From: Phytophthora sp. 'mugwort'
Taxonomy: Eukaryota; Oomycota; Peronosporomycetes; Peronosporales; Peronosporaceae
DNA: 64,000 bases
Direction of reading: 5' to 3'
NCBI GenBank assembly: GCA_033558025.1
Contig: JAUCEF010000007.1
Span: forward strand, 6,262,001 to 6,326,000
The notes under the pieces are model-generated. The model searched no databases. It worked only from the letters and a program-made list of their open reading frames with translations, and was not told the DNA's origin. Position 1 is the stretch's first letter, and every line of letters begins with the position of its first letter. Shown piece by piece: positions 6,443 through 7,030 of this stretch. A program made the position numbers and the translations under genes.

Positions 6443-6542
6443 AGAGGTACAGAAAAATTAATTGAATATAAAAATTATTTACAGGCGTTACCTTATTTTG
6501 ATCGTTTAGATTATGTATCTATGATGTGTCAAGAACATGCAG
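6443..6542 (+). pseudogene. nad7: nad7 fragment (mitochondrial NADH dehydrogenase subunit 7)
   Basis: The frame from AGA at 6443 reads RGTEKLIEYKNYLQALPYFD followed by RLDYVSMMCQEHA. This is the strongly conserved core of the 49-kDa/NuoD subunit of complex I, encoded in the mitochondrion of oomycetes. The match breaks off in mid-gene and joins a tRNA piece. Confidence 0.85.
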
Positions 6543-6600
6543 TAGTTTGCTAAACTATCAGTTAATTTATTAACTCGTGGGTTCAAATCCCACTTCGACT
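6540..6600 (+). tRNA. trnS: 3' part of mitochondrial tRNA-Ser (anticodon GCU), truncated
   Basis: An anticodon arm can be drawn (stem GTAGT/ACTAT with a G-T closing pair, loop TTGCTAA, anticodon GCT), followed by a long class-II variable arm (GTTAA-TTTA-TTAAC), a T-arm (GTGGG/CCCAC with loop TTCAAAT) and the 3' acceptor strand TTCGACT. The D-arm and 5' acceptor strand are replaced by nad7 sequence. This is a dead half-gene, part of the NUMT. Confidence 0.7.
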
Positions 6601-6607
6601 TATTTTA

Positions 6608-6665
6608 TTAATAAAGTACTAGACCAATTGTACTTGAGAAAAAGGCTGTAGAAGCTCCAATAATT
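6608..6665 (-). pseudogene. nad5: nad5 fragment (mitochondrial)
   Basis: The reverse strand reads TIIGASTAFFSSTIGLVL, a conserved transmembrane segment of NADH dehydrogenase subunit 5 (usual form ASTAFFxxTxGL). It is about 20 codons long and joins directly to a cox2-like piece. Confidence 0.65.
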
Positions 6666-6699
6666 GTAATAACTCAAAAAATTGATAATAAATACGCTC

Positions 6700-6761
6700 G
6701 AATTCGTAAATCATGATGAAAATTAAATACCTTCCATAACAGGTGTTGCTGGATCTTGAAA
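6700..6761 (-). pseudogene. cox2: cox2 fragment (mitochondrial)
   Basis: The reverse strand reads FQDPATPVMEGI and then, after a one-base slip, FHHDL. This matches the N-terminal conserved part of cytochrome c oxidase subunit 2. It is part of the mosaic NUMT. Confidence 0.65.
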
Positions 6762-6856
6762 TTACTGAAAGAATTGAAAACCCAATAGTTAATTCATATG
6801 AAATCATCTGTGCTGTTGATCTTAAAGCCCCTAAAAACGAATATTTAGAATTACTC
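6762..6856 (-). pseudogene. nad1: nad1 fragment (mitochondrial)
   Basis: The reverse strand reads SNSKYSFLGALRSTAQMISY then ELTIGFSILSVI, the hallmark loop and following helix of NADH dehydrogenase subunit 1. The frame is open across the piece and then runs into the cox2-like piece. Confidence 0.85.
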
Positions 6857-6921
6857 TTTAGTATAAAAATATGGATAAAAAGGTTATAAGATAATTTATA
6901 ATATTTTTTTGCATTTTTTTG

Positions 6922-6950
6922 GCTGGTGTTGTTGGTACAACAACACCAGC
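6922..6950. repeat. Perfect hairpin, 13-bp arms, 3-nt loop
   Basis: GCTGGTGTTGTTG - GTA - CAACAACACCAGC. It lies inside the NUMT next to the atp1 piece and is GC-richer than its surroundings, like the hairpin insertions found between genes in mitochondrial genomes. Confidence 0.9.
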
Positions 6951-7027
6951 AAAAGCACTAAAAAACAAATTGCTGGTACAATGAAATTAGAATTAGCACA
7001 ATTTAGAGAAGTACAAGCGATTTGAAT
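6951..7027 (+). pseudogene. atp1: atp1 fragment (mitochondrial ATP synthase alpha)
   Basis: The frame reads KQIAGTMKLELAQFREVQA, a near-invariant segment of F1-ATPase subunit alpha (usual context QVAGTMKLELAQ). Upstream similarity is blurred by a one-base slip and the hairpin. It ends where nuclear-like composition resumes. Confidence 0.8.
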
Positions 7028-7030
7028 TTT

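What the first reader, a model, noticed from the sequence alone, without database searches (positions are those of the whole stretch)
6443..7030. Mosaic NUMT built from six separate mitochondrial gene pieces
Within 590 bp there are short fragments of nad7, a tRNA-Ser, nad5, cox2, nad1 and atp1 in mixed orientation, each cut inside its gene. The matches are seen in translation (family assignment from established conserved motifs). The inference is that several small mitochondrial fragments were ligated at one chromosomal break, or that a recombined mitochondrial molecule was captured. Most NUMTs described are single collinear pieces.
Basis: partly seen in the sequence, partly recalled or inferred. 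Interest (0 to 1): 0.75.

Follow-up and report, generated by a model that had tools for sequence, protein, structure and literature searches.

The report
Shredded mitochondrial DNA patched into chromosome
A short stretch of chromosome in a Phytophthora-like organism is a patchwork of eleven tiny pieces of its own mitochondrial DNA, most likely used as filler when a broken chromosome was repaired; this kind of repair scar is already known from plants, yeast and people.

Summary
The window's own assembly contains the mitochondrial (mt) genome, so the block could be mapped base by base. Window 6443-7024 is covered without gaps by 11 pieces (21-99 bp, mean 55) from 10 places in a ~42-kb mt unit, in mixed order and orientation: nad7, trnS(GCU), nad5, rpl2, cox2, nad1, cob, rps3, cox1, cox1 inverted, atp1. 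Tiling score 462 against 0-20 in 15 Markov resamples. None of 10 junctions occurs in the mt loci held. Nine junctions share 1-5 bp, one is blunt. The two cox1 pieces form a fold-back. One substitution and two small indels separate block from mtDNA, so it is recent. Best reading: fragmented mtDNA captured in one double-strand-break repair by end joining, with one fold-back or inverted template-switch step. This is a complex (concatenated) NUMT, a known kind; the number and shortness of pieces are notable. A second, older mt mosaic lies 2.1 kb away (9136-9509), where two paralogues show the empty site. Reads that could exclude an assembly error were not available.

The parts
6443..6541 (+). Piece 1: nad7 fragment, sense (mt C45 31362-31264)
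   Evidence: (99% over 6439-6541, E 2e-47); ORF = PF00346
6539..6618 (+). Piece 2: 3' part of trnS(GCU) plus 16 bp of downstream spacer (mt 15203-15282); begins inside the tRNA
   Evidence: trnS(GCU) at mt 15176-15266
6616..6674 (-). Piece 3: nad5 fragment, antisense (mt 25467-25525)
   Evidence: (100% over 59 bp); ORF = nad5 Pfam domains
6674..6707 (+).
   Evidence: exact over 34 bp; BLAST 6670-6727, E 3e-13; PF03947
6707..6761 (-). Piece 5: cox2 fragment, antisense (mt 20107-20051), one 2-bp deletion
   Evidence: PF00116
6760..6855 (-). Piece 6: nad1 fragment, antisense (mt 873-968, or its copy in the other inverted repeat), one substitution
   Evidence: PF00146
6855..6884 (-).
   Evidence: exact over 30 bp; E 5e-10; PF00033
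6884..6921 (-).
   Evidence: (100% over 38 bp, E 8e-14); PF00189
6922..6942 (+). Piece 9: cox1 fragment, sense (mt 21077-21097); left arm of the fold-back
   Evidence: PF00115; hairpin
6938..6964 (-). Piece 9': same cox1 locus inverted (mt 21089-21065, exact extension to 6964); right arm of the fold-back
6963..7024 (+). Piece 10: atp1 fragment, sense (mt 26971-26911), one 1-bp insertion near its right end
   Evidence: PF00006
9136..9509 (.). Second, older mt mosaic: nad5 (9211-9255), nad1/inverted repeat (9255-9286), nad4 (9355-9431), mt 9055-8989 (9440-9502), an AT palindrome (9145-9211) and a 60-bp segment of unknown source (9293-9352). Edges from paralogue alignments, a few bases uncertain
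   Evidence: empty site in paralogues L052 and L053

Best explanation
This is a recent complex NUMT. SHOWN: 11 contiguous mt pieces from 10 loci, mixed strands, no filler between them, junction overlaps of 3,3,1,1,2,1,1,0,5,2 bp, almost no divergence from the resident mtDNA, on a 10.3-Mb contig. INFERRED: mtDNA degraded to fragments of about 100 bp or less reached the nucleus; at one double-strand break the ends and the fragments were joined one after another by end joining (classical NHEJ with short overlaps, or microhomology-mediated joining). At one step a cox1 strand folded back on a 5-bp stem, or switched to the opposite strand, and was copied, leaving the inverted cox1 duplication. I see no function; it is a repair scar. 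My confidence that it is a complex NUMT at all is about 0.93; the number below is for this joining mechanism.
For: Own-genome mapping and tiling. Gene identity of the source ORFs and tRNA. Host contig C7 is 10,304,332 bases; a Copia element lies upstream and nuclear paralogues match from 7267 on. Tiling 462 against 0-20 in 15 of 15 resamples. 10 of 10 junctions absent from 35 held mt loci; of ten control 22-mers taken inside pieces, nine occur there 2-22 times and the tenth, which spans the substitution, does not. Two patterns over junctions 1 and 8+9 occur once each in the assembly, on C7. The block's three differences from mtDNA have 0 exact occurrences in the held mt loci against 8, 2 and 6 of the mt form. 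Overlap of at least 1 bp at 9 of 10 junctions, 5.4 expected, P = 0.023; summed overlap 19 bp, 10.2 expected, P = 0.036. Two neighbouring pieces from within 30 bp of each other by chance: P = 0.014, halved for opposite strands. Short fold-back inverted duplications and multi-fragment mtDNA capture at breaks are documented in yeast (passages).
Against: Without the fold-back junction the microhomology excess is not significant (14 bp over 9 junctions, P = 0.13), so classical NHEJ and microhomology-mediated joining cannot be told apart, and ligation is not separated from template switching. No empty site of this block was found: the downstream flank 7025-7266 has no other match (3 of 3 candidates scored), and upstream no listed match reaches beyond about 5930 (40 of 58 candidates scored), so target-site loss and flank microhomology are unknown. 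No reads were available to exclude an assembly error.
Confidence: 0.6

Rival explanations
1. The block was synthesised by repeated template switching (replication-based or polymerase-theta-like repair hopping between mt fragments) rather than by ligating ready-made fragments.
For: Fold-back of cox1 on a 5-bp stem, very short pieces, overlap at 9 of 10 junctions. The neighbouring older mosaic also holds a palindrome, 90% self-complementary over 67 bp.
Against: Overlaps are mostly 1-3 bp and hardly above chance without the fold-back (P = 0.13); ligation explains them as well. The palindrome of the second mosaic has no proven mt source.
Confidence: 0.22
2. The pieces were first recombined inside the mitochondrion into a small aberrant molecule, which was then captured whole in one joining event.
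For: All pieces share one age (1 substitution in about 580 bp), as a single captured molecule would.
Against: 10 of 10 internal junctions are absent from the 35 mt loci held; two patterns over junctions 1 and 8+9 occur only on C7. The whole-block search lists no mt contig joining two pieces, though only 40 of 907 candidates were scored. A transient molecule cannot be excluded.
Confidence: 0.1
3. Assembly or library artefact: chimeric mt reads joined to a nuclear contig.
For: The assembly holds many redundant mt contigs, at least one of which, L036 on C114, looks rich in small indels by eye.
Against: Eleven ordered pieces with one sharp edge on each side are not what a chimeric read end gives (inference). 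The block has differences with no exact occurrence in the mt loci held. A second, diverged mosaic sits nearby with an empty site in two paralogues.
Confidence: 0.05
4. Several independent NUMT insertions at a hot spot, nested over time.
For: A second mosaic of different age lies 2.1 kb away.
Against: Within the block the pieces abut with no nuclear bases between them and share the same near-zero divergence.
Confidence: 0.03

Closest known systems
Complex / concatenated NUMTs (plants, yeast, humans)
   Same: Non-contiguous mt pieces in different orientations joined at one nuclear site; junctions with microhomology or blunt (PMC6215612 Background section; PMC9630118 passages)
   Different: Eleven pieces in about 580 bp is more than the two to four pieces counted among nearly 4,000 complex insertions in yeast (PMC10802722 passages). 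Mosaics of up to 100 segments, but of mt and plastid DNA over 3-92 kb, are reported in Arabidopsis and rice.
NUMTs of Phytophthora species
   Same: Short: table rows in a passage of PMC2820518 read P. sojae 9.948 and 152, P. infestans 111.22 and 675, P. ramorum 0.757 and 8. The text confirms the first number as kb for P. infestans; I take the second as the hit count (heading not seen), giving means of about 65, 165 and 95 bp by my division
   Different: The passages seen do not say how pieces are joined. A dedicated paper (Krampis et al. 2006) is known to me only from a reference list and was not held.
Yeast fold-back and templated insertions at breaks
   Same: Very short inverted duplications made through a fold-back at microhomologies, and a search for complex insertions with two donors from one locus (PMC11724301 passages)
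   Different: Experimental, in yeast; here inferred from sequence only, in a Phytophthora-like genome
Numins (mosaic mt-plastid insertions)
   Same: Several organelle fragments joined with NHEJ marks (PMC6215612 abstract)
   Different: All 11 pieces here are mitochondrial

Membership tests
NUMT | Sequence derived from the cell's mtDNA | tested here: met
   11 pieces match mt contig C45 of the same assembly; mt gene content confirmed
NUMT | Located on a nuclear chromosome | tested here: met
   Contig C7, 10.3 Mb, Copia element upstream and nuclear paralogues downstream. No read support was available.
Complex (concatenated) NUMT | Several pieces from different mt positions and orientations, adjoining each other | tested here: met
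   10 mt loci, both strands, gapless tiling
Insertion by NHEJ / microhomology-mediated joining | Junctions blunt or with 1-7 bp microhomology, no long homology | tested here: met
   0-5 bp at 10 of 10 internal junctions; the two outer junctions could not be tested
Insertion by NHEJ / microhomology-mediated joining | Microhomology above chance | tested here: inconclusive
   P = 0.036 with, 0.13 without the fold-back junction
Insertion at a double-strand break | Empty site with small deletion or none | tested here: inconclusive
   Block 1: no empty site found. Second mosaic: two paralogues show the empty site, about 37 bp replaced by about 374 bp
Numin (mt-plastid mosaic) | Both mt and plastid pieces | tested here: not met
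   11 of 11 pieces are mitochondrial

The most novel reading that the evidence does not exclude
In this Phytophthora-like lineage mtDNA reaches the nucleus already shredded to pieces of about 100 bp or less, and breaks are patched by serial template switching with fold-back copying, so that many-piece micro-mosaics (two within 3.1 kb here) are the normal form of NUMT rather than single collinear copies.
Probability: 0.2. Interest if true: 0.5.

Novelty: new member of a known kind. Interest (0 to 1): 0.32.

Why it matters
The block is young enough that its junctions are readable to the base, so it is a clean record of how mtDNA fragments are joined at a break in a Phytophthora-like genome. The listings of my searches show no paper whose title or opening abstract deals with such joints in oomycetes; I read passages of two of the listed papers, and subscription papers are mostly not covered. 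If such micro-mosaics are common, counting NUMTs by BLAST hit would overstate the number of insertion events.

Tried and rejected
Tried: ARAGORN found 0 tRNAs in the window. Rfam at a lax threshold gave two matches below their gathering scores over the tRNA piece, tRNA 18.7 of 29 bits and a plastid 3'UTR family 25.6 of 68, as expected of a cut tRNA. In 16 other nuclear loci (69,355 bases, some overlapping, recounted) one secure mt match was found, in L061, which had been fetched because it resembled the second mosaic; one weak match in L048 (28 bp, E 0.009) is probably chance. Reading the 60-bp segment at 9293-9352 as present-day mtDNA was rejected: the stretch 9281-9360 scores 19 against mt 23381-23560 on either strand, against 32 for the best match anywhere in the mt unit. 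A 12-base match at 7019-7030 was not counted as a piece. Pfam on six ORFs of the paralogous region gave nothing above cut-off.

Considered and rejected: functional gene or RNA (pieces are cut inside genes, none complete); capture of spliced RNA or cDNA (mixed strands, and the tRNA piece runs 16 bp into the spacer); long-homology recombination (no internal junction shares more than 5 bp).

Full report
Source. The window is C7:6262001-6326000 of an 86.26-Mb, 154-contig assembly; C7 is 10,304,332 bases. The assembly also holds many redundant mitochondrial (mt) contigs. I fetched the first 100,000 of 108,583 bases of C45. It repeats a unit of about 42.2 kb whose ends are 2,872-bp inverted repeats. 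Its genes are typical of mtDNA: nad7, nad5, rpl2, cox2, nad1, cob, rps3, cox1, atp1 and nad4 by Pfam and 25 tRNAs in the first 40 kb. Its rps3 is 85-91% identical to the Phytophthora proteins named in the listing, so the host is Phytophthora or a close relative; the species was not determined.

Observation. BLASTN of window 6300-7199 against C45 gives hits at distant mt coordinates and on both strands. A Viterbi tiling that allows jumps anywhere in the mt unit covers 6443-7018 without a gap, or to 7024 if a 1-bp insertion is accepted. It printed 12 mt segments; the last, 12 bases at 7019-7030, I do not count. The 11 pieces in order are nad7, trnS(GCU) 3' part plus spacer, nad5, rpl2, cox2, nad1, cob, rps3, cox1, cox1 inverted and atp1; lengths with overlaps 99, 80, 59, 34, 55, 96, 30, 38, 21, 27 and 62 bp. 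The tiling score is 462; 15 of 15 first-order Markov resamples of the block give 0-20. So this is far from chance.

Age and unity. Against the mt sequence the block shows one substitution (nad1 piece), one 2-bp deletion (cox2 piece) and one 1-bp insertion (atp1 piece). None of these three forms has an exact occurrence in the mt loci held, against 8, 2 and 6 of the mt form. Near-zero divergence in every piece speaks for one recent event.

Junctions. Overlaps at the 10 internal junctions are 3, 3, 1, 1, 2, 1, 1, 0, 5 and 2 bp (read from the exact extensions). Random joins of this 21.6%-GC mtDNA share 1.02 bp on average. The observed sum of 19 has P = 0.036, and 9 of 10 joins with at least 1 bp has P = 0.023. 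Without the fold-back join the sum is 14 over 9 joins, P = 0.13. There is thus a weak tendency to microhomology, and no filler bases. None of the 10 junctions occurs in the 35 mt loci held, 176,153 bases with overlapping copies; nine of ten control strings from inside pieces do occur there. A pattern over junction 1 and one over junctions 8 and 9 together occur once each in the assembly, on C7 (places recounted). The other seven junctions were not searched by pattern across the assembly; the whole-block search shows no second place with two joined pieces among the 40 of 907 candidates scored.

Fold-back. Pieces 9 and 9' come from the same cox1 stretch in opposite orientation and make a hairpin with 13 perfect pairs and the loop GTA. 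The mtDNA itself has only a 5-bp stem there in standard pairs, TGTTG-GTA-CAACA (read). A strand folding back on that stem and being copied, or switching to the opposite strand through the shared 5 bp, gives the observed sequence. The inverted copy runs 12-14 bp further than the retained left arm, so either some trimming followed or the template was a second molecule. Chance adjacency of two pieces from within 30 bp is P = 0.014, about 0.007 for opposite strands. Very short fold-back inverted duplications at breaks are described in yeast (passages of PMC11724301).

Surroundings. Upstream lies a Copia-type element: gag-pol ORFs at 1468-5672 with matching terminal segments at 1419-1498 and 5840-5919. 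Beyond about 5930 no listed match covers the stretch up to 6442, with 40 of 58 candidates scored. Downstream, 7025-7266 has no other match (3 of 3 candidates scored); from 7267 on, the sequence is 73-84% like stretches of C10 and C16. No empty site for this block could be shown.

A second mosaic. Scanning the whole window against the mt unit (E up to 1e-3) found one other mt cluster, at 9136-9509: nad5, nad1, nad4 and an mt stretch at 9055-8989, 84-97% identical, hence older. Both paralogues lack it and have 37 bp in its place, edges uncertain by a few bases; this is an empty site by paralogy. It begins with an AT-rich palindrome (9145-9211), 90% self-complementary, for which the assembly search listed no other place, and it holds a 60-bp segment that is 92% like a stretch on C17 inside an AT-rich block with an old NUMT. 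Its tiling score of 94 exceeds 15 of 15 resamples (6-42), but the small pieces change with the settings and only the four BLAST pieces are secure.

Mechanism. Shown: origin, order, junctions, recency. Inferred: fragmented mtDNA was used as filler in the repair of one chromosomal break by end joining, with one fold-back or inverted template switch. Ligation and template switching are not separated by these data.

Known kinds. Complex NUMTs are established in plants, yeast and humans (PMC6215612 Background section; PMC9630118 passages; PMC10802722 passages). In stationary yeast nearly 4,000 of about 33,000 captured insertions had two to four pieces. NUMT content in Phytophthora is known (PMC2820518 passages). 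So the block is a new member of a known kind; eleven pieces in about 580 bp and the readable fold-back make it a good specimen. My searches for oomycete NUMT papers listed none on joint anatomy by title or opening abstract; subscription papers are mostly not covered, and Krampis et al. 2006 could not be read.

Noticed in passing
window 9136-9509: A second, older mosaic of mt pieces 2.1 kb from the first, replacing about 37 bp that two paralogues (C10, C16) still have.
   Followed up: partly
window 9145-9211: AT-rich palindrome of 67 bp, 90% self-complementary, at the start of the second mosaic; no secure mt source, and the assembly search listed no other place.
   Followed up: partly
window 9293-9352 and L061 1501-1560 (C17:1670444-1670503): 60 bp shared at 92% between the second mosaic and an AT-rich block on C17 that also carries an old NUMT (mt 23401-23291, 80%); no clear match to present mtDNA, possibly lost or fast-changing mtDNA.
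   Followed up: partly
L021-L030 (C45): mt contig joins units both head-to-head and head-to-tail through 2.87-kb inverted repeats, which may reflect isomers or linear forms, or an assembly effect.
   Followed up: no
window 1419-5919: Copia-type LTR element with gag and pol ORFs; its terminal segment has at least 39 other matches in the assembly.
   Followed up: no
window 6622-6957, minus strand: The joined pieces leave a chance 112-codon stop-to-stop open frame across several mt fragments.
   Followed up: no
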